From assembly GCA_017557425.1 (NCBI GenBank), contig JAFYYU010000015.1, forward strand, positions 186,001-250,000: a stretch of 64,000 nt of DNA, read 5' to 3'. The stretch's first letter is position 1. Each line of letters starts with the position of its first letter. Under the pieces are notes generated by a model, which ran no database searches, was not told the DNA's origin, and saw only the letters and a program-made list of their open reading frames with translations. The DNA comes from Muribaculaceae bacterium (GTDB taxonomy: Bacteria > Bacteroidota > Bacteroidia > Bacteroidales > Muribaculaceae). This document shows positions 2,871 through 48,301 of this stretch, piece by piece. A program made the position numbers and the translations under genes.

Positions 2871-4406
2871 ATGTTTGAGAACCAACCTAAAGGACTTTTC
2901 GCGTTGGCGCTGGCCAACACAGGCGAACGCTTCGGCTACTACACGATGATAGCCGTGTTCGCGCTGTTTTTGAGGTCGAACTTCGGTTTCGACCCCAAGT
3001 GGGCAGGTGAAATCTATGGCGATTTCTTGATGCTCGTGTACTTCCTCCCGATTGTGGGCGGTTACCTTGCCGACAAGTTCGGCTATGGCAAGATGGTCAC
3101 TATCGGCATTATTATCATGTTCCTGGGATATCTGTTGCTGTCGGTGCCTCTGGGCGGGCAGACCGTCGCTATCGTGGCGATGCTGGCAGCCCTGCTGCTC
3201 ATCAGCTTGGGAACAGGCCTATTCAAGGGCAACCTCCAGGTAATGGTGGGCAACCTGTATGATGACACGCGCTACGCCAAGCAGCGCGATGCCGGTTTCT
3301 CGCTGTTCTACATGGCCATTAACATCGGCGCGTTGTTCGCTCCGACAGCCGCCGTCAAGATTACCGAGTACGCCCAGACGCATCTAGGCTACACCGCTCC
3401 TGGCGAGGCCTATCACTTCGCCTTCATGGTTGCGTGTGCGTCGCTGGTGCTCTCAATAGCCATCTACTACTTGACGCGCAGCACCTTCCGCCACACCGAA
3501 GGCAGTAAAAAAGATGTCGCCAAGGCTGCTGAAACCGTTCAGGAGCCCGAGTTGAGCAAGGAGGAAACCAAGGCACGCATCATTGCCCTGCTGCTCGTAT
3601 TTGCTGTGGTCATCTTCTTCTGGATGGCATTCCACCAGAACGGCCTGTCGCTGACCTATTTTGCCGATGAGTTCACCGCCAAGACCGCATCGGGTGTGCA
3701 TACCATGCCCTTTGATGTAATCAACCTGGTAATGATTATCCTTATCGTCTATGCCGGCTTCTCGCTGTTCCAAAGCAAAACCGGCAAGGGCAAAGGCATC
3801 TCGGCCGCTATCATCCTCGCATGCCTTGCGGTGCTGGGTTACAAGTACACCCGCGCCACTGGCACCGTCGACATTTCGGCACCCATTTTCCAGCAGTTCA
3901 ACCCGTTCTATGTCGTGGCATTGACGCCCGTTTCGATGGCTATCTTCACCTATCTGGCCAACAAGGGCAAAGAGCCATCGGCGCCCCGAAAGATTGCCTA
4001 TGGTATGCTCGTGGCAGGTGCAGCGTTCTTCATTATGCTGTTCGCCTCCCAAGGTCTGAACACGCCTAACGAGCAAGCCGCATTGGCCGAAAGCGGCCAG
4101 CTTGGCGCGCTCGTTTCACCCTACTGGTTGATTTCGACCTATCTGGTGCTGACCTTCGGTGAGCTGTTGCTCTCGCCGATGGGCATCTCGTTCGTCAGCA
4201 AGGTAGCACCTCCCAAGTACAAGGGTCTGATGATGGGCGGCTGGTTCGGCGCCACCGCCATCGGCAATAAGCTGGTAAGCGTGGGCGGTTACCTGTGGGG
4301 CGACCTGCCCCTGTGGGCGGTATGGACCGTGTTCATCGCTGTCTGCCTCGCCGCGGCTATCTTCATGTTCGCCATGATGAAGCGCCTGGAGAAGGTAGCC
4401 AAGTAA
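2871..4406 (+). CDS. Second POT/PTR family oligopeptide transporter
   Basis: A 511-residue paralogue of the preceding transporter; both begin MF(K/E)N(H/Q)PKGL and carry the same signature (here NTGERFGYYTM, residues 16-26). Multiple hydrophobic helices, the SFVSKVAPPKYKGLMMGGW stretch near the C-terminus and a cytoplasmic charged loop (GSKKDVAKAAETVQEPELSK) fit the POT fold. It sits 97 bp after the first copy, so the two may be co-transcribed despite the hairpin between them. A terminator closes the unit. The pair probably arose by tandem duplication and may differ in peptide preference. Confidence 0.92.
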   Translation: MFENQPKGLFALALANTGERFGYYTMIAVFALFLRSNFGFDPKWAGEIYGDFLMLVYFLPIVGGYLADKFGYGKMVTIGIIIMFLGYLLLSVPLGGQTVAIVAMLAALLLISLGTGLFKGNLQVMVGNLYDDTRYAKQRDAGFSLFYMAINIGALFAPTAAVKITEYAQTHLGYTAPGEAYHFAFMVACASLVLSIAIYYLTRSTFRHTEGSKKDVAKAAETVQEPELSKEETKARIIALLLVFAVVIFFWMAFHQNGLSLTYFADEFTAKTASGVHTMPFDVINLVMIILIVYAGFSLFQSKTGKGKGISAAIILACLAVLGYKYTRATGTVDISAPIFQQFNPFYVVALTPVSMAIFTYLANKGKEPSAPRKIAYGMLVAGAAFFIMLFASQGLNTPNEQAALAESGQLGALVSPYWLISTYLVLTFGELLLSPMGISFVSKVAPPKYKGLMMGGWFGATAIGNKLVSVGGYLWGDLPLWAVWTVFIAVCLAAAIFMFAMMKRLEKVAK

Positions 4407-35230: not shown

Positions 35231-35366
35231 GCGTTAAACTATGTCAAAAGTATTAAATGTGAAGGCTTTGAAAGTTGTACTTCAAAACTCTACCATAGTT
35301 GTACCGTTTAATATATAAATATCCGATAATCAATTAACTGTAACTTCTGCGTGGAAAGGTAAATAC
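35231..35366 (+). repeat. Dispersed repeat, copy 1
   Basis: About 136 bp sharing GTTAAACT-TGTCAAAAGTATTAAATG, TTTGAAAGTTGTACTTCAAA and an ATATATAAATAT core with copies at 38359 and 40681, all in the same orientation. Confidence 0.8.
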
Positions 35367-36792: not shown

Positions 36793-36868
36793 TTGAGAAT
36801 TTCGGCATTTTTCAATATTCGACCATTGAGAATATCGGCATTTTCTGCACTTTTCCTTTGATATTTGG
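36793..36868 (+). repeat. Three phased motifs before ATPase A
   Basis: TTGAGAATTTCGG (36793), TTGAGAATATCGG (36826) and a weaker TTGATATTTGGG (36858), with a pitch of 33 and 32 bp. They end just before the -7 box. Confidence 0.7.
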
Positions 36869-36879
36869 GATTTTATGGT

Positions 36880-36887
36880 TACATTTG
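36880..36887 (+). promoter_or_regulatory. -7 element for ATPase A
   Basis: TACATTTG followed by C, 25 bp before the MKMAERIF start; the 415-bp gap 36490-36904 otherwise holds only the phased motifs and an imperfect palindrome near 36661-36690. Confidence 0.6.
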
Positions 36888-36904
36888 CACCTGATAATAC
36901 AAAG

Positions 36905-38278
36905 ATGAAAATGGCAGAAAGAATTTTCAGACGCAAAATATATGAGCAAATGCTGAGTTGGAAGAAAAATCAGCACGGAACGACAGCACTTCTTATCAGG
37001 GGTGCAAGGCGTGTCGGCAAGTCCACTGTTGCCGAGCAATTTGCCCGTAATGAATACGAGAGCTACATATTGGTTGACTTCTCAACAGCAACGCAAGCAA
37101 CACACCGTTTGTTTGAAGATGTCTCCAATCTGGACTACATCTTCACGCAACTGCAACTTAACTATCGAAAAAGCCTGAAACCACGCAAGTCTGTCATCAT
37201 CTTTGATGAAATACAGAAGCAGCCATTAGCCCGGCAAGCTATTAAAACACTTGTGGCCGATGGACGCTACGATTACATCGAAACTGGCTCTCTGTTGAGC
37301 ATCAAGCGTAAAAGGAAGTCAGCTGGCAACTCCGAGCAACAGAAAAACATTCTCATTCCCAGTGAGGAAACGCACCTTGATATGTACCCCATGGACTATG
37401 AGGAGTTTCGTTGGGCATTGGGAGATGACCAAACTATTCCCCTTTTGCGTACAATGTTCAACAATTTAAGTCCACTGAGTGATGATACGAATCGTCGCAT
37501 GATGCGCGATTTCCGTCTATATGTTTTGGTTGGAGGCATGCCCCAGGCAGTCAATGACTACCTTGACACTCACGACATGAGCATTGTTGACCAACGCAAG
37601 CGTAGCATTCTTGACCTATACGATGAAGATTTCTACGACTTGGATCCATCAGGTCAAACCTCCGACCTGTTTCATGCCATTCCTGCTCAACTAAACAGTA
37701 ACGCCTCTCGCTATCAGGTGAGTAGCGTGATTGAGGGAGGAAAACTGGATCGTTTGAGAGGTCAGATAAATATCCTCAAAGATTCCATGACCGTCAATAT
37801 AGCTTATCATGCCAACGACCCAAGTGCAGGATTGGCATCACACATCAACCGCGACCAGTTCAAATTGTTTTGCGGAGATACAGGACTATTTGTCACTCTC
37901 GCTTTCTGGGACGATAAATTTACAGAGAATGTCATTTACCAAAAATTGTTGAGCGATAAACTGAATGCTGATGTGGGCTATGTATACGAGAACTTGGTGT
38001 CACAGATTCTGACAGCCACTGGGAATAAGTTGTATTACCATACGTGGCCGACACCATCGGGCAAACATAACTACGAGATAGACTTCCTGTTGTCCCGTAA
38101 AGCTAAAATCTGCCCGATAGAAGTCAAGTCATCGACATCCAATCTTCATGTTTCCATTGATGAATTCCAGAAGAAGTTCTCGGCCCGCATCCTTCAACGG
38201 TACCTCCTTCATTCAAAGGACATTCGGAAAGAACGGGACTTGATAATGCTGCCAATGTATATGGCAATTTTTCTTTAG
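36905..38278 (+). CDS. AAA+ ATPase with DUF4143-type C-terminus (ATPase A)
   Basis: About 457 residues from MKMAERIFRRK. The P-loop is GARRVGKST (residues 34-41) and Walker B is SVIIFDEIQ. The C-terminal region ends with a restriction-endonuclease-like strand-helix (CPIEVKSSTSN), as in the AAA_14/DUF4143 family. These proteins are abundant and of unknown role in Bacteroidales. Upstream lie three phased motifs; downstream is dispersed-repeat copy 2. It is expressed from its own promoter. Confidence 0.85.
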   Translation: MKMAERIFRRKIYEQMLSWKKNQHGTTALLIRGARRVGKSTVAEQFARNEYESYILVDFSTATQATHRLFEDVSNLDYIFTQLQLNYRKSLKPRKSVIIFDEIQKQPLARQAIKTLVADGRYDYIETGSLLSIKRKRKSAGNSEQQKNILIPSEETHLDMYPMDYEEFRWALGDDQTIPLLRTMFNNLSPLSDDTNRRMMRDFRLYVLVGGMPQAVNDYLDTHDMSIVDQRKRSILDLYDEDFYDLDPSGQTSDLFHAIPAQLNSNASRYQVSSVIEGGKLDRLRGQINILKDSMTVNIAYHANDPSAGLASHINRDQFKLFCGDTGLFVTLAFWDDKFTENVIYQKLLSDKLNADVGYVYENLVSQILTATGNKLYYHTWPTPSGKHNYEIDFLLSRKAKICPIEVKSSTSNLHVSIDEFQKKFSARILQRYLLHSKDIRKERDLIMLPMYMAIFL

Positions 38279-38358
38279 TGCAATCAGGTTATAGATTTGA
38301 AACTATTCCGATATGATTAAGATGATGGTCAAAATCCCCGTTTTTGACTCATTTCGAT

Positions 38359-38489
38359 CGTTAAACTTAGTCAAAAGTGTTAAATGTGAAGGCTTTGAAA
38401 GTTGTACTTCAAAACTCTACCATATTTGCACCGTTTAATATATAAATATCTGATGTTCAATAATTTGCATTTTCTGCATCGGCAAATAA
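38359..38489 (+). repeat. Dispersed repeat, copy 2
   Basis: About 131 bp, the best preserved copy, ending TTTCTGCATCGGCAAATAA 7 bp before the methyltransferase ATG; it could carry that gene's promoter (CATATTTGCACC). Confidence 0.85.
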
Positions 38490-38495
38490 TTTAAT

Positions 38496-39017
38496 ATGAG
38501 CAATAATTCTTTGAGATTCAGAGTGTTTAAGGCAATACTAGCTTTGCCTATACCCGTTTGTATCATTATACCATCGATATTGCTGTATTTTTCTGATTGG
38601 CAACCGGGAGGTTTGCCTGTATGGAGGGCCGTAATCGGTGTAATTTGTTTCCTTGCAGGCATCTTTTTAGCAGTATCGACAGTGAGATTGTTCCCCAAAC
38701 TTGGCAATGGCACTCCAGCGCCATGGGATCCCACTACAAAAATGATAGTCACAGGCCCGTATGCCTACGTACGCAATCCGATGATTACGGGTGTTGTTCT
38801 AATTCTCATCAGCGAGGCTTTGATGTTTGGCTCATTGGCTATCGGCATTTGGGCAGTAGTATTTCTCATCATCAATATGTTTTACTTTCCCTTGTCCGAA
38901 GAACCTGGCCTTCGCAAGCGTTTCGGCAAAGAATATGAAGAGTATTGCAAAAATGTGCCACGATACATCCCACGCCTAACGCCGTGGAAACCAGATTCGT
39001 CACCATCCTTAGAATAA
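38496..39017 (+). CDS. Isoprenylcysteine carboxyl methyltransferase-like (ICMT/PEMT) membrane protein
   Basis: A 173-residue protein with three to four hydrophobic helices. TTKMIVTGPYAYVRNPMITG is the SAM-binding GPYxxxRNPM motif, and EEPGLRKRFGKEYEEYCKNVPRYIPR matches the C-terminal helix of the family. These enzymes methylate small lipids or modified residues at the membrane; the substrate is open. It lies between dispersed-repeat copies 2 and 3 with ATPase B. A paralogue lies at 58643. Confidence 0.88.
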   Translation: MSNNSLRFRVFKAILALPIPVCIIIPSILLYFSDWQPGGLPVWRAVIGVICFLAGIFLAVSTVRLFPKLGNGTPAPWDPTTKMIVTGPYAYVRNPMITGVVLILISEALMFGSLAIGIWAVVFLIINMFYFPLSEEPGLRKRFGKEYEEYCKNVPRYIPRLTPWKPDSSPSLE

Positions 39018-39150
39018 TATCAACAAAAAAAGTCCTATATACAACCCTGAATAATCCTGAAGCATGGTCTCTCAATCAAACTATGCTCAACAAAGAATAG
39101 TTTGATTTCTAAATAATGCACTTTTTTATGATTTTTCTTGGCGGCATAAT

Positions 39151-39228
39151 TTGAAAAGTGTAATTTTGCAGTGGTAAATTATATTGAAAAGTGTATTTTT
39201 CTACTGCTGAAAATATTTGAAAAGTGTA
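39151..39228 (+). repeat. Three phased motifs before ATPase B
   Basis: TTGAAAAGTGTA at 39151, 39184 and 39217, exactly identical and 33 bp apart. The first overlaps a candidate -7 box (TAATTTTG, 39161-39168); the last ends 6 bp before the ATG. Confidence 0.85.
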
Positions 39229-39234
39229 AATTCA

Positions 39235-40599
39235 ATGCTATACAGAAAGATTACATCATATCTTGAGGACTATTTAAAGTCTGATACTGACACGATTCTA
39301 ATATTGGAAGGGGCCCGTCAGGTCGGCAAGTCATTCAGTATCCGTGAGGTTGGCACACGATTGTACCCGAATTTTGTCGAAATAAACTTTGTGGAAGACG
39401 ATGAGGGTCAGCAATTGTTTAAGAATATCCACAGGAAAGAAGACTTCTACCTGACACTCAGTATGGTGGCTGGAGACAAGTTATCCAGTCGTGATGATAC
39501 GTTGGTGTTTCTAGACGAGATTCAACACTATCCTCAGTTCCTGACCATGCTGAAGTTTCTGCGTGAGGATGGGCGTTACCGTTATATTGCTAGCGGCAGT
39601 CTGCTTGGCATCACTCTGCAGGACACAACCTCCATTCCCGTAGGCAGTATTATCCGCAAGGAGATGTTCCAGCTTGACTTCGAGGAATTTCTCATTGCCA
39701 ATGGCTTTGGCTCTGAGGCCATAGACATGTTGAGACAATCCTACTTGAATCGTCAAAGTCTTACTGAGGAGCATCACAAACACGTGTTGGATTTATTCCG
39801 CCGATATCTTTTGGTGGGCGGATTGCCTGATGCAGTCAATATCTATCTAGACACGCATAATATCGTGCGAGTGCGCGAAGTGCAGGATGGCATACGAAGC
39901 CTATATGCGGATGACGCATCCAAATACGAAAGAGAGCACTCCAAGAAACTGCTTATACGCCGCATCTATGAAATGATTCCTTCACAGATGGAAAACAAAA
40001 AGAAGCGCATAGTGGCCCAGAAGATACGGGGAAAGGAGGGTGACCGTTTCTCCCAATATCAGGAAGAATTTGAATACCTGGTCTCGTCAGGCATAGCACT
40101 AGCTGTTCATGCCATATCCAATCCACATTTCCCCTTGAGTGAGTCTCTCCAGAAAAACCTGCTAAAGTTGTATCTAAATGATGTGGGGCTGCTTACCGGC
40201 CTTCTCTATCATAACAACATACGTCCTGTTATCGACGATGTGAGAAGCATCAATCTGGGTTCAGTTTATGAGAGTGTTGTTGCTCAGGAACTGAGAGCGC
40301 ATGGCCACAAACTCTTTTACTACGATAATCGTAAACAGGGCGAAGTGGACTACCTTATTGACGACCATACTGCAATGAGGCCCCATCCGATAGAAGTCAA
40401 GTCGGGCAAGGACTATAACGTACATAGTGCGCTTAACAATCTCCTAAAGAACCCCGATTACGATATTCAAGCAGCTACCGTCATCTCCAATGAGCGTGAG
40501 ATCTATCAGAAGGACAAAGTCACTTATTTGCCCGTCTATTTTGTCATGTTCATGGAAATTGATACACCTCAGACAGATGAATCAGCATACATTTTCTGA
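39235..40599 (+). CDS. AAA+ ATPase with DUF4143-type C-terminus (ATPase B)
   Basis: About 454 residues from MLYRKITSY. Walker A is EGARQVGKS (residues 25-33) and Walker B is LVFLDEIQHY. The end of the protein includes HPIEVKSGKDY with an ExK pair as in restriction-like nuclease folds. It is more than half different from ATPase A but has the same architecture. The ORF could begin at a TTG inside the third motif, but that would place translation in the repeat. Function unknown; in context, possibly part of a defence or plasmid-stability system. Confidence 0.85.
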   Translation: MLYRKITSYLEDYLKSDTDTILILEGARQVGKSFSIREVGTRLYPNFVEINFVEDDEGQQLFKNIHRKEDFYLTLSMVAGDKLSSRDDTLVFLDEIQHYPQFLTMLKFLREDGRYRYIASGSLLGITLQDTTSIPVGSIIRKEMFQLDFEEFLIANGFGSEAIDMLRQSYLNRQSLTEEHHKHVLDLFRRYLLVGGLPDAVNIYLDTHNIVRVREVQDGIRSLYADDASKYEREHSKKLLIRRIYEMIPSQMENKKKRIVAQKIRGKEGDRFSQYQEEFEYLVSSGIALAVHAISNPHFPLSESLQKNLLKLYLNDVGLLTGLLYHNNIRPVIDDVRSINLGSVYESVVAQELRAHGHKLFYYDNRKQGEVDYLIDDHTAMRPHPIEVKSGKDYNVHSALNNLLKNPDYDIQAATVISNEREIYQKDKVTYLPVYFVMFMEIDTPQTDESAYIF

Positions 40600-40680
40600 T
40601 TGTTTACATGCAAATTGACAACTTCACAGTATATGTCGAAATGGAAAACCTGTTTGCCATTTAGGCAGCATTAATACCAG

Positions 40681-40814
40681 CGTTAAACTTAGTCAAAAGT
40701 ATTAAAAATGAGGGGTGATGAAATAGGTACTGTAAAACTCTACCGTATTTCTGCCATTTAGTATATAAATATATGAAATTCAATTAGTTGTATCTTCTGC
40801 ATCGGCAAATAAAG
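40681..40814 (+). repeat. Dispersed repeat, copy 3
   Basis: About 134 bp, more diverged in its middle, between the convergent ATPase B and PorU genes. Confidence 0.75.
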
Positions 40815-40839
40815 CTTTACAAAGAACTTTGAAGAACAC

Positions 40840-43800
40840 TCAATCGGCTGGTATAGTGAGTTTCTGGGCTCTTGTCGCCATTTGCACGCCATCGGCCGTG
40901 ACAGTAACGCGGTAGATGTAAATGCCGCCAGGCACACGTGTGCCACCGTTGTCCTTCATATTCCATTTGACGGGTGTGGCGGTGAATATGCCACTACTAC
41001 CCGACGGCGCACTGTGCCATACGCAGCGCCCCATCAGGTCATACACCTCGATGGTCAGGCTCACCTCAGCACCCAGACGATTATGTCGCACATAGAAGGT
41101 CATATCCGAGCCGTCAAACGCGGTGTAGATATCGAGGTTCTCGGGGGCAGTGATCTCGGGTACTGCGCCGTTGGTGACGTTGAAGGTAATGGTCTTCTCA
41201 CTCACATTGTTGTGCACGTCCCACACGGTCAAGGTCAGGGAGTGCTCGCCCTCGGGCAGTTCGTTCAACTGGTAACTGATGCTCCCTATCGTTCCCTGTT
41301 GAGCAGACATGGGGATATAGTAATTCACCACGTCATCGTAAATGATGCTGCCGTCGAGCGTGAGCACCATGCTGTGCACACTGCCTGACGATAGGTTCAC
41401 TCCGCTCTCATCAGCAACGGTCGCCAACAGCATCGGCGACGAGTTGACGTCGCTGCCGTCAATGAAGGTTTCATCATTCAGGACCATCGTGATGATGTCG
41501 GGACCGATGGTGTCGGTCTTCTCATCCCCAAAGATGAAGAAATCATTGCTGGAACCCTTTGCCTCCAGCGTGTCACGACTATCGTAAGCGTACAGGCTGA
41601 TCAGCGCAGGGCGATAATTGTCATTCTCATCGTTGACTTCGTCAGGAATGATGACACGGACCGTGAACTCGCCATTCACAACGGTATCTGAATTGACGGT
41701 GAGGCGGTTGGACCAATCATCATAGGTGACCTCCGCACCAGTAGCGCCATAGCCGTTGGTGGTCACCGACTGTTCAGGGCCAAACAGCGTCGAGACCATT
41801 ACACCGTTGAAATCGGTAGCTACTTTACCGTCCAGTCCGATAATCTTGCCTCCAAACTCTACAGACTCATGCGCCGCAAACACTAACGGTTCATAGTTCT
41901 CATCGTCAACTGCTCGGCCGTTGATGGTCTCAATACGAGCCGTCAAGGGTGCATATGCCAGCCTCATGGCAGGGTCACCGAACACAATGAAGCGGCGGTT
42001 ATTGTCACTCATCGTTGGGATATCGTTCTTGGCCATTTTGATGATATCTCCGATGCGTGTTGGACAGCCTCTCTCATCACCAGCGAAGATGTAGCCCCCC
42101 ACAGCCCGATCCATCTGGCCATTGGGGGAAAGATAGGTTAGCCTGGCGGGACAGATGGCTGCTATGACGCCGCCGTTGGGGTTGATGAACATGTGCTCGC
42201 CGCTTGATACCGAATCGTTGTCAAAGCGGCAGAAATCGGCAGTAGCGGCATATAGAACTGGCAAATGACTGTAATTCAGCAGACTTTCAACATCTGATTG
42301 TGTCAACAGCCCCTCATTGGTCCACTGCTGTGTATTGGAGCGCCCGATGTAGTTCCACCACAGGCTGCCCTCGTTCAACGAGTTGAACATCTTGGCTCGT
42401 GCATCGGGATAGGTACGTCTCCCGCCCTCGCTCACGGCTTCAAAGGCGTCGATGTACACATAATCGTAATCCATGTTTTCGCCACCGTGGCTGCGGATGG
42501 TGCTGATCATGGCATTGGATTGATTCATATGAGCACCATTGTCCTCGTCGTCGGCAACAAACATCATCCGGTTCTTCCAGGAACCGTAGTCGGGCCTGGT
42601 GATATAATTCTCAAGTTTGTCCACCACCGTACGTGCCTCGTCCTCGCTCCTGAAAATCATGCGTCCCACAGCGATGCTCATCTTATCATTATTATCGATG
42701 CCGCTGCCATCGTCCAGCAATGCGAAGTAGTCGTCGGTGGTGAAGGAATATTCTTCGGCGCTACTCGTCTCGCTCTGCCATGTGATCAGCCTGGGGGAGT
42801 CCTGAGAACCGGCATCGCTGCCTATAAAGCGGTTGTCGTAGCTACCGCCGCCAAACAACAGCAGGTACTGCAGCCGGTGGCCGTGTTGGCTCTCGCCACG
42901 GTCATAGAACATCTTGCACAGCCGGCGATAGGCCATCGCATCCGGGGTGCCGCTGGAGAACTCGTTGAACACCTGCTCGTGGTCCAGAACCAACACGCTG
43001 AAGTGGTCATATCGCTCGTGAAGCGCTGCCACCCGCTGCGCCTGCTCCAGATAGGCAGCAGGAGCGAGGATAATCATGTCGGGCGTCGCCTGGGCATGGA
43101 TGTCTTGGTTGGATACTTTGCCCACCAGTTCAGGATGGGAGTAGGCGGTCGCCGATTCATCGAAGGCGATGAACTCGCGGCGGCCGCTCGTGCCGGGACT
43201 GAATGCGGCAATGCCATCAGTCGTGGTTATATTCTGTTGCACCGGGGCTGAGGGCACGGTGACGTCCCACACTCTGGTGGGACCCACACAACACGTCAGC
43301 TGGTAAGTGGTGTCGCGGCTCGCATTGTTCAAGCCGAATGCCAAGCAACCGTTTCTCATAGCCAAGCGGCGCTCATAGTTGATGGTGATGAAGTCCAGAC
43401 GCGCCTCAAGCACCGTACCTGGGCAGGAAAAATCGACCTGAAACCAGAGTTGATCGGTACCATCAAGAGTGAACCGCTTGACCGTCTTTGCCAGCTTGTA
43501 ATGTTCATAACTCAGATTGTAGCAAATACCGATGATGTCATCATCGGTCTGTGCCAACTGGGTACCGTTGTACCAGTAGGTCAGGGAACTCTTAGCGTCG
43601 GTCGTCTTAGCGGCAAATACGGGATAGACACTGACCATGGAGCCGTCTACCAGCCCGTCCAGGTCAAACTGGAATGTCTGACTGCGGTTGTCGACAAAAC
43701 TCTCGCCCAGGTAGTTGCGTCCCGTATGACCAGGGTTAATGATATCCTGCTCATGGTAAAGGCGTTCGATGTAGGTGCTCTTTGACGGACCTGTGAGGCT

Positions 43801-44298
43801 GTTGTCGGCCACGGTAATGTCAATATCGTCGTAACGGGCGCTGTTCGTGACCAGATAACAGCCTGTGTTGGCATAGGGGTTCTGCACCTGCACATAAGGA
43901 ATGATATTGTTTAACCGTTGCCAGGTAGTGGGTCCCTGGGCGTAAAACAGGATGCGGTCGCCATGGCGCACAACGGGCACCTGCGGCAGGTCATCGCAGT
44001 AGTTGTCGCTCAGCATCACCTCGCTCAGCGGTGCGCCACCGTATCCGAATATATGGATTTGCGACAGGTCGGAGCCTAAGCCCCAGTTACTGACGTCTTC
44101 ATCGGTAATCTGGAAAATGCCGCTCTCGTGGACGGCAATCTTGACCCATTGGCCCTCAGCAAGTTTGCTGGCAGGCGCATAATAACTCTGGTCCAATGCC
44201 TTGGCACTGCCGGCGGTAATCGCCAACACACCAAGGCACACAATCAAACGAATGAAATATTTCACCATTGTTTTCGCAATATTAGATATCATGCTCAT
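40840..44298 (-). CDS. porU: PorU-type type IX secretion C25-family protease
   Basis: About 1152 residues from MSMISNIAKTMVKYF, chosen for a strong AGAGGAG site; an ATG at 44331 and the open frame to 44397 have none. The N-terminal signal peptide, IHIFGYGGAPLSEVMLS, PDMIILAPAAYLEQA, QYLLLFGGGSYDNR and the C-terminal VYDLMGRCVWHS...GGIYIYRVTV beta domain fit PorU, the signal peptidase that removes C-terminal sorting domains. The usual NYxGHG is NYIGRS (Arg653) and the usual TxCxF is TADFCRF (Cys690), so the catalytic pair looks altered. It may be a variant or degenerate copy. Outer-membrane location is expected. Confidence 0.8.
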   Translation of the reverse strand: MSMISNIAKTMVKYFIRLIVCLGVLAITAGSAKALDQSYYAPASKLAEGQWVKIAVHESGIFQITDEDVSNWGLGSDLSQIHIFGYGGAPLSEVMLSDNYCDDLPQVPVVRHGDRILFYAQGPTTWQRLNNIIPYVQVQNPYANTGCYLVTNSARYDDIDITVADNSLTGPSKSTYIERLYHEQDIINPGHTGRNYLGESFVDNRSQTFQFDLDGLVDGSMVSVYPVFAAKTTDAKSSLTYWYNGTQLAQTDDDIIGICYNLSYEHYKLAKTVKRFTLDGTDQLWFQVDFSCPGTVLEARLDFITINYERRLAMRNGCLAFGLNNASRDTTYQLTCCVGPTRVWDVTVPSAPVQQNITTTDGIAAFSPGTSGRREFIAFDESATAYSHPELVGKVSNQDIHAQATPDMIILAPAAYLEQAQRVAALHERYDHFSVLVLDHEQVFNEFSSGTPDAMAYRRLCKMFYDRGESQHGHRLQYLLLFGGGSYDNRFIGSDAGSQDSPRLITWQSETSSAEEYSFTTDDYFALLDDGSGIDNNDKMSIAVGRMIFRSEDEARTVVDKLENYITRPDYGSWKNRMMFVADDEDNGAHMNQSNAMISTIRSHGGENMDYDYVYIDAFEAVSEGGRRTYPDARAKMFNSLNEGSLWWNYIGRSNTQQWTNEGLLTQSDVESLLNYSHLPVLYAATADFCRFDNDSVSSGEHMFINPNGGVIAAICPARLTYLSPNGQMDRAVGGYIFAGDERGCPTRIGDIIKMAKNDIPTMSDNNRRFIVFGDPAMRLAYAPLTARIETINGRAVDDENYEPLVFAAHESVEFGGKIIGLDGKVATDFNGVMVSTLFGPEQSVTTNGYGATGAEVTYDDWSNRLTVNSDTVVNGEFTVRVIIPDEVNDENDNYRPALISLYAYDSRDTLEAKGSSNDFFIFGDEKTDTIGPDIITMVLNDETFIDGSDVNSSPMLLATVADESGVNLSSGSVHSMVLTLDGSIIYDDVVNYYIPMSAQQGTIGSISYQLNELPEGEHSLTLTVWDVHNNVSEKTITFNVTNGAVPEITAPENLDIYTAFDGSDMTFYVRHNRLGAEVSLTIEVYDLMGRCVWHSAPSGSSGIFTATPVKWNMKDNGGTRVPGGIYIYRVTVTADGVQMATRAQKLTIPAD

Positions 44299-44526
44299 GT
44301 GAACTCCTCTAGGTAAAACATGTTTTATCATTGCAGCAAATGCTGTAGTTCTTAATCTACTGCAAAAATAGCTACTCCTATTGTAACTACCAACCATTTG
44401 GGGGACAATTCTCGGAATTGTCCATTTTTACGCACTAATTATTACATTACCCCATTCAATAGTTCAAGCGGGCTTGACATGCAGATGGTAATTAAAAAAA
44501 TCAGACAATGAATAACAAACTTTTCG

Positions 44527-44534
44527 TATCTTTG
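44527..44534 (+). promoter_or_regulatory. -7 element for the SDR/ligase pair
   Basis: TATCTTTG followed by C, ending 7 bp before ATG 44542, so the transcript would begin at or next to the start codon (leaderless). Confidence 0.6.
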
Positions 44535-44541
44535 CAGGCAA

Positions 44542-45303
44542 ATGATGAGCCTCTGGAAAAAAATAGTCTATCCCTCCATTGCGATAAGCGATGACAAATT
44601 GAGCAGGCACCTTGCGGGCAAGTGGGTTGTCGTCACAGGAGCGACGTCGGGCATCGGTGAAGCATTGACCCTTAGGCTGATCCATGCAAAAGCCAACCTC
44701 TATCTGATTGCCCGGAACGAGCAGAAATTGATAGACCTGTGCCATCAGGCCAAGGAGAATGGTTGTGAGGCGTGTTATGACGTCATCGATCTGAGGCAGC
44801 GCGAACAGTTAGACACCCTTTGCGGCGCATTAAGAGAGAGGTTCCCTGCTGTGTCCTATCTTTTTTGCAACGCGGGGAAATCCATCAACCGAACAATTAA
44901 TGACTCCATCGACAGGATGCATGATTTTGACCGTACCATGGATTTGAATTATCGTTCAATGGTCGCGTTGTCCTTGGCACTGATGCCTGCCCTGAGAAAA
45001 GCAAAAGGCCGTATTGTATATACTTCATCGGTGAGCAGCCGATATCCTTTCATCCCGGGATGGTCAGCCTATCATGCATCCAAATGCGCCGCCAACGCAT
45101 GGTGCAGGACAGCCCGCAGAGAATACAAGCAGCTTGGGGTAAAGGTACAGATAGCATACATGCCCCTGGTCCATACGCCGATGTCGGATGTGAATGAGAG
45201 ATACAAAAACATGCCCGCTTATTCCGCCGATGAGGCCGCCTGCATCCTATTGCGATTGGCGATGAGTGGAAAGTTTTGTTATAAACCCTGGTGGGCCATT
45301 TAG
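44542..45303 (+). CDS. Short-chain dehydrogenase/reductase
   Basis: A 253-residue Rossmann oxidoreductase: cofactor loop VVVTGATSGIGEA (about residues 29-41), NAG in FCNAGKS, and catalytic SSVSSRY with YHASK (the Tyr-x-x-x-Lys pair). Acts in the cytosol on an NAD(P)-linked substrate not readable from sequence. Two ATGs open the frame (44542, 44545). It is followed by an acyl-CoA ligase gene 14 bp later, suggesting joint action on a lipid or acyl substrate. Confidence 0.9.
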   Translation: MMSLWKKIVYPSIAISDDKLSRHLAGKWVVVTGATSGIGEALTLRLIHAKANLYLIARNEQKLIDLCHQAKENGCEACYDVIDLRQREQLDTLCGALRERFPAVSYLFCNAGKSINRTINDSIDRMHDFDRTMDLNYRSMVALSLALMPALRKAKGRIVYTSSVSSRYPFIPGWSAYHASKCAANAWCRTARREYKQLGVKVQIAYMPLVHTPMSDVNERYKNMPAYSADEAACILLRLAMSGKFCYKPWWAI

Positions 45304-45317
45304 GGGGTAAAAACGCC

Positions 45318-46826
45318 ATGAACAGGTCAATATTCACAAAACTTGCTAAACTGCACATCATCACGCCAGGCGGAATTTTTCACTTGGCAAAAAGCTTTTC
45401 CCGCGATGGCATTTCGCTGATGGCATTATTGCGCTTTTCGGCCCATTATTACCCTGACCGTTGCGCCTTGGTTTCGGAGGGAGAGCGGTTAACGTACAAA
45501 GAGATGTATGAGTCCGCCAATCAGTTGGCCAAAGTGCTGTTCTCGGATTATAGCCTGAAAGCGGGAATGTGTGTCGGACTGCTGTGCAGGAGTCACATGA
45601 TGGGAGCATTGCTGTTACCGGCATTGTCTCGTCTTGGAGTTAAAGTGAAACTGCTGAATACCGGCATGGCCCAGTGCAAGTTGAATGACTTGATCAAGAA
45701 AAACAAGATCGATTTGCTCATTTATGACCCGGAATTGAAAAACACACTCATCCCCGACGACCTGCCATGTGCAACCGAAGAAACCGAGGATTTATACCAC
45801 AGGTTGTCAAACAAGGACAAAAGCAACGACCAGATACTCCCTCACATCAAACGAGGAGGCGAGCTATCGGTGTTTACTGGTGGGACAAGCGGAAAATATA
45901 AGGAAGCGCCAAGGCAGATGTCTATCTTCCAGTTCCTGCCTCCCTTTTTTGCGCTGTTGGAAAAACTACGTATCGATGAGTATGACAGTGTGTTCTTGCC
46001 CTTGCCCGTGTATCACGGTTTCGGGCTGGCCACCCTCGTTATATCACTCCTGATGGGCAAGAAAGTTTGCCTTGTGAAGCATTTTGATGCCGATAAAGCC
46101 TTGAAAATCATATCCGAAGAAAAGACAGAAGTGTTGCCTGTCGTTCCTGCAATGCTTGCCCGGTTGTGGCAAGCTGGCAATGCGCCCACACTGATGAAAT
46201 CGGTACGGTGTGTCATTTGTGGCGGGGACCGCCTTGACAGGAAATGGATTACCGCGACTAACGAACACCTGGGCAATGTCATCTTTAATCTATTCGGCAC
46301 CTCCGAGGCGGGTTTCTTTATGGTAGCGACTCCCGACGACTTGTCAAGAAACGAAGAAGTCACCATCGGCAGGCCCATATCTGGAGTGAAATGCCAAATC
46401 AAGGATGCTGACAGTAACGGAACAGGTTCGCTGTGGGTGCGTTCCGGTTGGGCAATGATCAACATGAAAGACAAATGGCAAGATACCGGCGACCTGGTTT
46501 ACCGCAATTCTGAAGGCTGTTACTTCTATCGGGGCCGGACAGACAATATGGTCGTTTGTGGCGGAGAGAACGTCTATCCTGAAAATGTCGAAAGAATCAT
46601 CAACGGGCATCCTGACGTCTTGGCCTCGTTAGTGTTCCCTGTCTCAGATCCTCAATTCGGGACCGTGCTTAATGCCCAAGTCGAACTCATCCAGGACTCG
46701 TCCTTGACCCCTGACGGACTCAAATCATGGTTGCATTCACGGCTTTCCCGTGCCGAAATGCCCCATCTCATATCAATTCAACCCATCCATACCTCAGAAA
46801 CCGGCAAGAAGACGCGTGACATATAA
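45318..46826 (+). CDS. AMP-binding acyl-CoA synthetase/ligase
   Basis: About 502 residues from MNRSIFTK with a GGGGG site upstream (an ATG at 45291 overlaps the previous gene). Adenylation motifs are VFTGGTSGKYKEAP (P-loop, a variant of the usual TSGTTGxPK), FGTSEAGF, DTGDLVYRN, YFYRGRTDN and VVCGGENVYPENVE, with the final catalytic Lys in TGKKTRDI. It activates a carboxylate with ATP for thioester formation. Together with the SDR it could form a small lipid pathway, but no product can be named. Confidence 0.88.
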   Translation: MNRSIFTKLAKLHIITPGGIFHLAKSFSRDGISLMALLRFSAHYYPDRCALVSEGERLTYKEMYESANQLAKVLFSDYSLKAGMCVGLLCRSHMMGALLLPALSRLGVKVKLLNTGMAQCKLNDLIKKNKIDLLIYDPELKNTLIPDDLPCATEETEDLYHRLSNKDKSNDQILPHIKRGGELSVFTGGTSGKYKEAPRQMSIFQFLPPFFALLEKLRIDEYDSVFLPLPVYHGFGLATLVISLLMGKKVCLVKHFDADKALKIISEEKTEVLPVVPAMLARLWQAGNAPTLMKSVRCVICGGDRLDRKWITATNEHLGNVIFNLFGTSEAGFFMVATPDDLSRNEEVTIGRPISGVKCQIKDADSNGTGSLWVRSGWAMINMKDKWQDTGDLVYRNSEGCYFYRGRTDNMVVCGGENVYPENVERIINGHPDVLASLVFPVSDPQFGTVLNAQVELIQDSSLTPDGLKSWLHSRLSRAEMPHLISIQPIHTSETGKKTRDI

Positions 46827-46888
46827 GACAGATTCATAAAAGCGATCAGTCGTTTTTGCAAAATATAGCAAACAAAAGAACAGAAAAA

Positions 46889-46965
46889 TGTAAAATATCG
46901 CGTTTTAGAATCCAAAAAATTGTAAAATATCGTGATGTGTCAGCAAGAAAACTTGTAAAATATCG
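46889..46965 (+). repeat. Three phased motifs before ATPase C
   Basis: TGTAAAATATCG at 46889, 46921 and 46954; copies 2 and 3 continue TGAT. The pitch is 32 and 33 bp. Confidence 0.85.
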
Positions 46966-46986: not shown

Positions 46987-46994
46987 TATCTTTG
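46987..46994 (+). promoter_or_regulatory. -7 element for ATPase C
   Basis: TATCTTTG followed by C, 20 bp before the ATG and 21 bp after the last phased motif. Confidence 0.7.
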
Positions 46995-47014: not shown

Positions 47015-48301
47015 ATGGCAATTGATAAAAGGACACTAGAATTTGTTCTGACCGAGCAAAGGGAAGAATTAGAAGACAGGGCAAAGGAAAACTATTGCTA
47101 TCGAAGCGAAGCAGAACTTGTTGACCTATCGAGCACACAGGCTCAGGTAATTATCGGAGTGCGTCGCAGCGGCAAGTCAACCCTTTGCTATCAAGCATTA
47201 CAGAGCAAAGGTGTAAAATATGCCTATGCCGATTTTGATGATGAACGATTAGCAGGCATCGAAGCAGTACAGCTGAATGATATCCTGGAGACCCTGTATA
47301 AGATCTATGGTGATTTCAATTATTTATTCCTTGATGAAATCCAAAATGTCGAAGGATGGCACCTGTTTGTGAATCGTATGCTCAGGAAAAGAATGCATGT
47401 CATCATCACAGGCTCCAATGCAAAACTGCTAAGTGTGGAATTGGCAACACATCTCTCAGGAAGAAACAAAGAGATCCCTTTGTATCCTTTCTCATTTAGG
47501 GAATACTGTGATATGAAAGGAGTCGATACCAATACTAAGACCACCAAGGCCGAAGCATTTCGCAGGGCTGCATTTGATGAGTACATGAAACAAGGTGGAT
47601 TTCCTGAACTATTAACAATCAAAGACAACAAGGCTTACGTCAGAAATCTAGTTGACAATATCCTGAAGCGAGATATCGAGCAACGATACCGCATCACATA
47701 TAAGGCTGCTTTTGAGAGACTTGCCCAACATCTCTTAAACAACTCGCCCACTATTATCGTCACAAAGGAATTAGCAAATATCTTCAACTTCAAGTCAGAT
47801 CAAACGGCCAAAAACTATGTAGACTATTTGAAGCAGGCCTACCTTTTAATAGGGGTTCAAAAATACTCACAAAAAAGCAAACTTAGAATCGTACAAGAGA
47901 AAGTCTATCCAGTTGACGTGGCATTAATGAGCCAACGTGATAATGCTTTTGCGGGCGAGAACCTCGGGCACCGTCTTGAAACCATCGTACTGGTTCATCT
48001 TTTGCGCAAATGCAAGACCGAAGGGCTTGACGTGTATTATCTGAATGACCGTTGTGGTGAATGTGACTTCGTGGTCTGTCGAGGCAATACCGTGGTTCAA
48101 GCTATACAAGTGTCCTACGATATCTCAGCTGACAAGACTCGCAAACGCGAGATCAAGGGGCTAGATATTGCAGCGAGACAGACAGGCTGTTCCAACCTGT
48201 TACTGCTCACTGACAATGAGAGCAACACAATACAAGAAAACTCTGGGCGCAAAATCAAGGTACAACCCGTTTATGAATGGTGCCTTGAACTTGGGCTCTA
48301 A
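47015..48301 (+). CDS. AAA+ ATPase with DUF4143-type C-terminus (ATPase C)
   Basis: A 428-residue protein. Walker A is GVRRSGKST (residues 48-56), Walker B YLFLDEIQNVEGW. Its C-terminal region AIQVSYDISADKTRK lies where ATPases A and B have an ExK motif and lacks it. Otherwise the domain order matches. Phased motifs and a promoter are upstream. It lies between the ligase gene and the GH109 gene without sign of co-transcription. Confidence 0.85.
   Translation: MAIDKRTLEFVLTEQREELEDRAKENYCYRSEAELVDLSSTQAQVIIGVRRSGKSTLCYQALQSKGVKYAYADFDDERLAGIEAVQLNDILETLYKIYGDFNYLFLDEIQNVEGWHLFVNRMLRKRMHVIITGSNAKLLSVELATHLSGRNKEIPLYPFSFREYCDMKGVDTNTKTTKAEAFRRAAFDEYMKQGGFPELLTIKDNKAYVRNLVDNILKRDIEQRYRITYKAAFERLAQHLLNNSPTIIVTKELANIFNFKSDQTAKNYVDYLKQAYLLIGVQKYSQKSKLRIVQEKVYPVDVALMSQRDNAFAGENLGHRLETIVLVHLLRKCKTEGLDVYYLNDRCGECDFVVCRGNTVVQAIQVSYDISADKTRKREIKGLDIAARQTGCSNLLLLTDNESNTIQENSGRKIKVQPVYEWCLELGL

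What the first reader, a model, noticed from the sequence alone, without database searches (positions are those of the whole stretch)
36793..46965. Three unrelated-by-location ATPase genes each have three locus-specific motifs at a 32-33 bp pitch
ATPase A (36905), B (39235) and C (47015) are all AAA+/DUF4143-type. Before each start lie three copies of a motif of about 12 bp: TTGAGAAT-type (36793, 36826, 36858), TTGAAAAGTGTA (39151, 39184, 39217) and TGTAAAATATCG (46889, 46921, 46954). Copies are near-identical within a locus but differ between loci, while the 33-bp pitch (about three helical turns) is constant. This suggests cognate, self-specific DNA recognition, for example each ATPase or a bound partner controlling or marking its own gene on one DNA face. 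I do not know a published description.
Basis: seen in the sequence. Interest (0 to 1): 0.8.

Follow-up and report, generated by a model that had tools for sequence, protein, structure and literature searches.

The report
Self-addressed repeat arrays of defence-candidate ATPases
Many copies of a very common but uncharacterised bacterial defence-candidate gene carry, in front of themselves, a private set of DNA repeats spaced at whole turns of the helix, which looks like a lock that only that gene's own protein can read.

Summary
The repeats are real. At B (39151/39184/39217) and C (46889/46921/46954) three perfect 12-mers at 32-33 bp pitch are the only such triplets in the window, and each 12-mer occurs exactly three times in the 2.58-Mb genome. 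At A only two copies are good; close orthologues have three.

The pattern is general. The genes are AAA_14+DUF4143 ATPases, PADLOC's single-gene 'phage defence candidate' PDC-S01. In 101 genus genes a three-copy array (>=9/12) stands before 35, against 2 of 2020 shuffles and 3 of 269 controls, all three beside such genes. B orthologues in Bacteroidota, Bacillota and Lentisphaerota keep motif and pitch (71 of 74; exactly 33/33 in 67). A orthologues at 52-62% identity have other motifs but the same pitch. Motif similarity follows the predicted winged helix in one clade (n=49), not within A or C alone. Arrays overlap or adjoin the promoter; array plus ORF is the shared unit.

Best explanation: each protein binds its own helically phased operator and represses itself. 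Binding, repression and defence are inferred, not shown. My searches found no published description. The structure prediction never returned.

The parts
36793..36838 (+). Array A: two good copies of TTGAGAAT[T/A]TCGG (36793-36805, 36826-36838), pitch 33
   Evidence: orthologues with three perfect copies
36857..36874 (+). Array A: degenerate copy TTTGATATTTGGGATTTT, next to the promoter-like box TACATTTGC (36880)
36905..38278 (+). Gene A: AAA_14 + DUF4143 ATPase (P0001), PDC-S01
39151..39228 (+). Array B: TTGAAAAGTGTA x3 at 39151, 39184, 39217 (33/33); the promoter-like box TAATTTTGCA (39161) overlaps copy 1; copy 3 ends 6 nt before the ATG
39235..40599 (+). Gene B: AAA_14 + DUF4143 ATPase (P0002), PDC-S01, PD-(D/E)XK-like residues E370, D372, E387, K389
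46889..46965 (+). Array C: TGTAAAATATCG x3 at 46889, 46921, 46954 (32/33); promoter-like box TATCTTTGCA at 46987
46857..46868 (+). Possible weak fourth copy of array C (TGCAAAATATAG)
47015..48301 (+). Gene C: AAA_14 + DUF4143 ATPase (P0003), PDC-S01; the E-x-K motif of the nuclease-like end is not kept

Best explanation
Each gene is a self-contained unit: promoter with a cognate operator array, plus one ORF encoding an AAA+ ATPase, a winged-helix DNA reader and a PD-(D/E)XK-like end. The protein binds the copies of its own array side by side. Because the copies are about three helical turns apart (two or four in some subfamilies), the protomers lie on one face of the DNA and can touch through their AAA+ domains. 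The bound oligomer covers the promoter and represses the gene. The constant pitch reflects the fixed size of the protomer; the private sequence lets many paralogues live in one cell without cross-repression. In defence, infection would presumably disturb ATPase state or occupancy and release the protein. Shown computationally: arrays, pitch, genome-wide uniqueness (B, C), motif-protein covariation, promoter overlap, array + ORF as the shared unit. Inferred: binding, oligomer, repression, nuclease activity, defence and its trigger.
For: Arrays before 35 of 101 genus genes against 2 of 2020 shuffles and 3 of 269 controls; direct repeats at lag 32 in 38 and lag 33 in 31 of 101 genes, at lags 31 and 34 in 2 and 0 (controls 6, 3, 3, 3 of 269). 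B: 71 of 74 orthologues with three copies, pitch 33/33 in 67, the last copy at -18 to -98 from the ATG; motif kept in Bacillota and Lentisphaerota. A: 20 of 30 orthologues with arrays, pitch 33/33 in 18, motifs quite different. B and C 12-mers: three occurrences each in the genome, the reversed control pattern none. Promoter box TAnnTTTG in the array span in 56 of 60 B and 28 of 41 genus genes; shuffles 76 of 820. Clade-I partial Mantel: winged-helix region r=0.52, p=0.0005; AAA -0.04; nuclease end -0.37. A B clade of six with base 10 changed from G to C/T has R271 changed to T/I; R in 65 of 65 others.
Against: No binding, expression or structural result; the fold job never returned. Within A alone (n=20) and C alone (n=14) the Mantel test does not single out the winged helix (A: nuclease end, C: AAA). 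The R271 link is one clade and one of five columns that change there; across 33 clade-I genes R goes with G in 22 of 26, and L052- has Y with G. 54 of 101 genus genes fail the three-copy test at p<=0.02; several have pairs or palindromes. A and C have the promoter box in the array span in only 13 of 20 and 6 of 14. The helix-turn-helix rests on one sub-threshold HTH_11 match (L046).
Confidence: 0.75

Rival explanations
1. The array is the recognition end of a mobile element: the ATPase-nuclease binds it to move array plus ORF to new places, and promoter overlap is secondary.
For: Among 103 B pairs of >=82% nucleotide identity the homology begins 81-140 nt before the ATG in 91 and ends within 20 nt of the stop codon in 77, mostly with unrelated flanks. 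Other subfamilies show the same edges. Arrays without their gene exist. Profile relatives include TniB weakly (5 of 19 members, best E 0.009).
Against: By eye no copy of the motif, inverted end or target duplication at the right edge. The only identical pair in one genome is bounded by N runs. Conserved edges may simply be the functional unit after gene exchange; I had no control gene family for this test.
Confidence: 0.1
2. The array acts in RNA: repeated motifs in the 5' leader bind the protein and control translation or RNA decay.
For: In B, copies 2 and 3 lie downstream of the promoter-like box, copy 3 near the start codon.
Against: In A and C the array lies upstream of the box. The distance of the last copy to the ATG varies from -18 to -98 while the pitch is fixed. 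Pitches near whole helical turns make sense for DNA.
Confidence: 0.05
3. A host transcription factor, not the encoded protein, reads the arrays.
For: Arrays sit at promoters.
Against: Every subfamily has its own motif in one genome; the B and C motifs occur nowhere else in it; the B motif is kept across phyla with other promoters; motif follows protein.
Confidence: 0.03
4. The arrays are iterons of a replication origin and the ATPase is an initiator of a small replicon.
For: AAA+ plus DNA reader plus iterated sites is initiator-like (recalled); a 2,630-bp Prevotella nigrescens plasmid carries one such gene.
Against: That plasmid's gene shows no array by the triplet test (L259); the units sit in chromosomal contigs; no other replication gene belongs to the unit.
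Confidence: 0.03

Closest known systems
PDC-S01 phage defence candidate (PADLOC)
   Same: All three proteins match PDC-S01 models over most of their length (best E 3.3e-94, 1.8e-179, 1.5e-96). One paper describes it as an ATPase fused to a PD-(D/E)XK member and as the fourth most common defence across prokaryotes (PMC12988326, passages).
   Different: The passages seen say nothing of repeat arrays or cognate operators; the array belongs to the unit as found here. Defence itself is not shown for PDC-S01 in those passages.
Archaeal ATPase_2 proteins (PF01637; PDB 2fna, 2qen)
   Same: Profile A1 matches 2fna (E 6.4e-9) and 2qen (E 2.9e-4) in the ATPase part; 13 of 19 members match PF01637 weakly.
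   Different: DUF4143 rather than the archaeal C-terminal end; arrays in archaeal members were not tested.
Iteron-bound plasmid initiators that repress their own gene (recalled)
   Same: Iterated, helically phased sites at the gene's own promoter, read by a winged-helix protein.
   Different: No origin or replicon evidence; motif private to each paralogue; nuclease-like end.
Autorepressed toxin-antitoxin and restriction controller (C-box) operators (recalled)
   Same: A potentially harmful protein under a cognate operator that travels with the gene.
   Different: One protein only, with ATPase, reader and nuclease-like end; three or more phased copies of constant pitch with very variable sequence.

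Membership tests
PDC-S01 (PADLOC) | Match to PADLOC's PDC-S01 profile models | tested here: met
   P0001, P0002, P0003
PDC-S01 (PADLOC) | ATPase domain fused to a PD-(D/E)XK member | tested here: inconclusive
   AAA_14 + DUF4143 met. E370, E387, K389 invariant and D372 >=90% in A2 (66 sequences, B-rich); P0003 lacks the E-x-K motif. The nuclease reading is from the paper's passage and motif, not from a profile hit or a model.
PDC-S01 (PADLOC) | Protects against phage | not testable with these tools
   No experiment; the passages call validation pending for most PDCs
Cognate autoregulatory operator | Sites at the gene's own promoter | tested here: met
   B 56 of 60, genus 28 of 41, shuffles 76 of 820; weaker for A (13 of 20) and C (6 of 14)
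Cognate autoregulatory operator | Site sequence varies with the protein | tested here: met
   Mantel r 0.44-0.66 in three sets
Cognate autoregulatory operator | The protein binds the site and changes expression | not testable with these tools
   needs bench work
Winged-helix reader in DUF4143 | Helix-turn-helix fold between ATPase and C-terminal part | tested here: inconclusive
   HTH_11 E 2.3e-4, 21.4 bits below its 25-bit cut-off, in 1 of 19 members (L046 217-246); structure job not returned
Transposon / insertion sequence | Terminal repeats or target duplication at both ends | tested here: inconclusive
   none seen by eye at the right edge of 21 B loci in five groups; no systematic search
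Plasmid iteron initiator | Replication origin function | not testable with these tools
   no replicon among the loci looked at except

The most novel reading that the evidence does not exclude
The array is more than an operator: it is the protein's private address. A mobile single-gene cassette carries its own DNA label, and the AAA+ oligomer assembled on that label is the resting, counted state of an immune nuclease; losing or titrating the label (invasion, replication, degradation) switches the nuclease on. Fixed pitch with freely changing sequence makes the family a natural library of orthogonal, helically phased DNA readers.
Probability: 0.15. Interest if true: 0.95.

Novelty: new variant of a known kind. 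Interest (0 to 1): 0.82.

Why it matters
PDC-S01 is described as the fourth most common defence across prokaryotes (PMC12988326, passages) and as the most frequent single locus in a rumen survey (PMC13356809, passages), yet how it works is not known. If each copy carries its own readable target, the family gets a first biochemical handle: a known DNA ligand for each protein. Site specificity, oligomer geometry and control become testable at once, and hundreds of natural protein-site pairs could be used to learn a recognition code.

Tried and rejected
Sequence search of solved structures with P0002 alone: none at E<=0.1. NCBIfam: no match for the three proteins. Identical intragenomic copies as proof of mobility (L111/L112): set aside because both copies are bounded by N runs. 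Viral contigs with two spaced B motifs: none. Thermus expression: a paper lists TT_P0211 (AAA 14, DUF4143) as 6.6-fold up in HB27 with plasmid, only when Argonaute is present (PMC4406477, section 7); I did not establish which of the pTT27 loci it is, and the locus I looked at (L337) has no array by the triplet test, so it is not used as support. Host-factor, RNA and iteron readings: see rivals. Archaeal members: not tested, for want of an archaeal locus. Per-domain Mantel within A and C did not support the winged helix and is reported as such.
Full report
CHECK. B and C have three perfect 12-mers at 33/33 and 32/33 bp; no other triplet of >=11/12 at pitch 28-40 exists in the 64 kb window. A has two good copies and a degenerate third; as a triplet it is not significant (350 of 3000 shuffles), as a 24-nt pair it is (0 of 3000). 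Each of the B and C 12-mers occurs exactly three times in the 2.58-Mb genome, all in its own array; the reversed control patterns occur nowhere.

WHAT THE GENES ARE. All three proteins are AAA_14 + DUF4143 and match PADLOC's PDC-S01. One search lists six DUF4143 genes in the genome and misses A, so there are at least seven. In the genus sample 60 of 61 genomes have such genes, up to 29 in one.

IS IT GENERAL? I collected 104 protein hits from the window and L001-L095, dropped two duplicates of window loci and one fragment, and kept 101 genes. The best three-copy 12-mer at pitch 28-40 scores >=9 in 35 of 101 genes, in 2 of 2020 shuffles, in 3 of 269 controls with intergenic >=120 and in 4 of 464 of all controls (the fourth was not looked at). 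By coordinates the three lie beside a DUF4143 gene: two divergent neighbours (L090, L045) and one array before a miaA-like ORF (L052). Direct-repeat pairs peak sharply: lag 32 in 38 and lag 33 in 31 of 101 genes; lag 31 in 2, lag 34 in 0. Scored gene by gene, 47 of 101 have a three-copy array at p<=0.02. With pairs and palindromes added, 88 of 101 have some organised site at p<=0.025, against 26 of 120 sampled controls; the control triplet rate (9 of 120) is itself above nominal, so these p-values are rough. Subfamilies differ: cluster 6 has arrays in 13 of 13; cluster 18 has none, but a palindrome in 7 of 9.

PITCH. Among 116 of 224 genes with arrays >=9 the pitch is 32-33 in 103, 20-23 in 11 and 40/41 in 2 (73 of the B orthologues are in this set, so it is B-heavy). 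Distant C relatives show weak 40-43 bp spacings. These lie near three, two and four helical turns.

B ACROSS PHYLA. Named relatives of B at 61-93% identity come from Bacteroidota, Bacillota and Lentisphaerota. Of 79 genes found in these loci 68 score >=9 (five or so are not B orthologues). Of 74 B orthologues 71 have three copies, pitch 33/33 in 67, 32/33 in 3, 33/32 in 1; spacers vary and the last copy lies between -18 and -98 from the ATG. In Bacillota the array is kept although the promoter looks TATAAT-like (by eye).

A AND C. A orthologues: 20 of 30 with arrays, 33/33 in 18; C: 14 of 29 (one further locus too short). At 93-97% identity A keeps TTGAGAATTTCGG; at 52-62% it has motifs such as TGGGATTTTGGA, ATTTTGCGGAAA, AAACGGACAAAT or GCGCTCGCGGGA at the same pitch.

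OTHER TAXA. A phylum-wide sample: 6 of 50 genes >=9 at pitch 18-45, shuffles 0 of 750; the frequency there is much lower than in the genus, and the sample is rich in a subfamily without arrays. Of 18 plasmid-borne relatives 7 pass p<=0.01: Azotobacter, Ensifer, Collinsella, Vescimonas, Glaesserella, Segatella, Peptoclostridium.

COVARIATION. Motif similarity rises with protein identity in A (n=20), C (n=14) and clade I (n=49), r 0.44-0.66. With the other parts controlled, the winged-helix region stands out in clade I (r 0.52, p 0.0005; AAA -0.04; nuclease end -0.37), but in A the nuclease end and in C the AAA part do, so the domain assignment rests on clade I. In B one clade of six (support 0.999) has C or T for G at base 10 and T or I for R271, R in 65 of 65 others; four other columns change in the same clade. 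In 33 clade-I genes R goes with G in 22 of 26; of five without R or K one has G. R271 falls where L046 has a sub-threshold HTH_11 match.

PROMOTER. The box TAnnTTTG (Bacteroidota promoter element, recalled) lies in the array span in 56 of 60 B, 28 of 41 genus, 13 of 20 A and 6 of 14 C genes; shuffles 76 of 820.

THE UNIT. In 103 B pairs of >=82% nucleotide identity with enough flank, homology begins 81-140 nt before the ATG in 91 and ends within 20 nt of the stop codon in 77; the sequences show it directly, as do other subfamilies. The exact two-copy B pattern occurs in 13 of 101 genus genomes: in 9 a B orthologue follows; in 4 it does not, one of these keeping the array and the start of the gene, one lying before gene A. 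Arrays are thus left behind when genes are lost.

MECHANISM. The simplest account is self-binding and self-repression by an oligomer on one face of the DNA. Everything from binding on is inferred. A nuclease function is likely for B (E370, D372, E387, K389 conserved) and doubtful for C (no E-x-K).

LITERATURE. 'DUF4143' is in one paper of the library; PF13635/PF13173 in one other, listing seen only; 'PDC-S01' in three, two seen in passages. Four further searches showed nothing on arrays in their listings. Subscription papers and preprints are largely not held, so this is no proof of absence.

Noticed in passing
window 35232-35350, 38356-38480, 40681-40812: A ~125-bp direct repeat (80-88% alike) found three times in the genome, all around cassettes A and B; relative L175 has the same pieces in another order, with B next to A's left flank.
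   Followed up: partly
L343, L344, L345, L350; L052 near 4000-4090: Orphan arrays without their gene, one with only the first ~26 codons left: relics of lost cassettes.
   Followed up: partly
L001, L019-L024, L040, L068, L070 and others: Cassettes repeatedly sit just after the same gene ends (reading ..QLRQFRFPILK* or ..LDRSNY..*), which may be exchange hotspots; by eye.
   Followed up: no
L111 and L112 (genome G021, 29 DUF4143 matches): Two identical 1,796-bp stretches with the gene on two contigs, bounded by N runs.
   Followed up: partly
L259: A 2,630-bp Prevotella nigrescens plasmid record with only a DUF4143-type ATP-binding protein and a TaqI-like specificity domain protein.
   Followed up: no
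L322-L329, L334, L336: Distant C relatives show TTTTGTGCAATA-like motifs in alternating orientation about 21 bp apart (by eye).
   Followed up: no
L013, L007, L010, L011, L014, L018, L008: Subfamily 18 has, in place of a direct array, one long palindrome at the promoter box (7 of 9 genes).
   Followed up: partly
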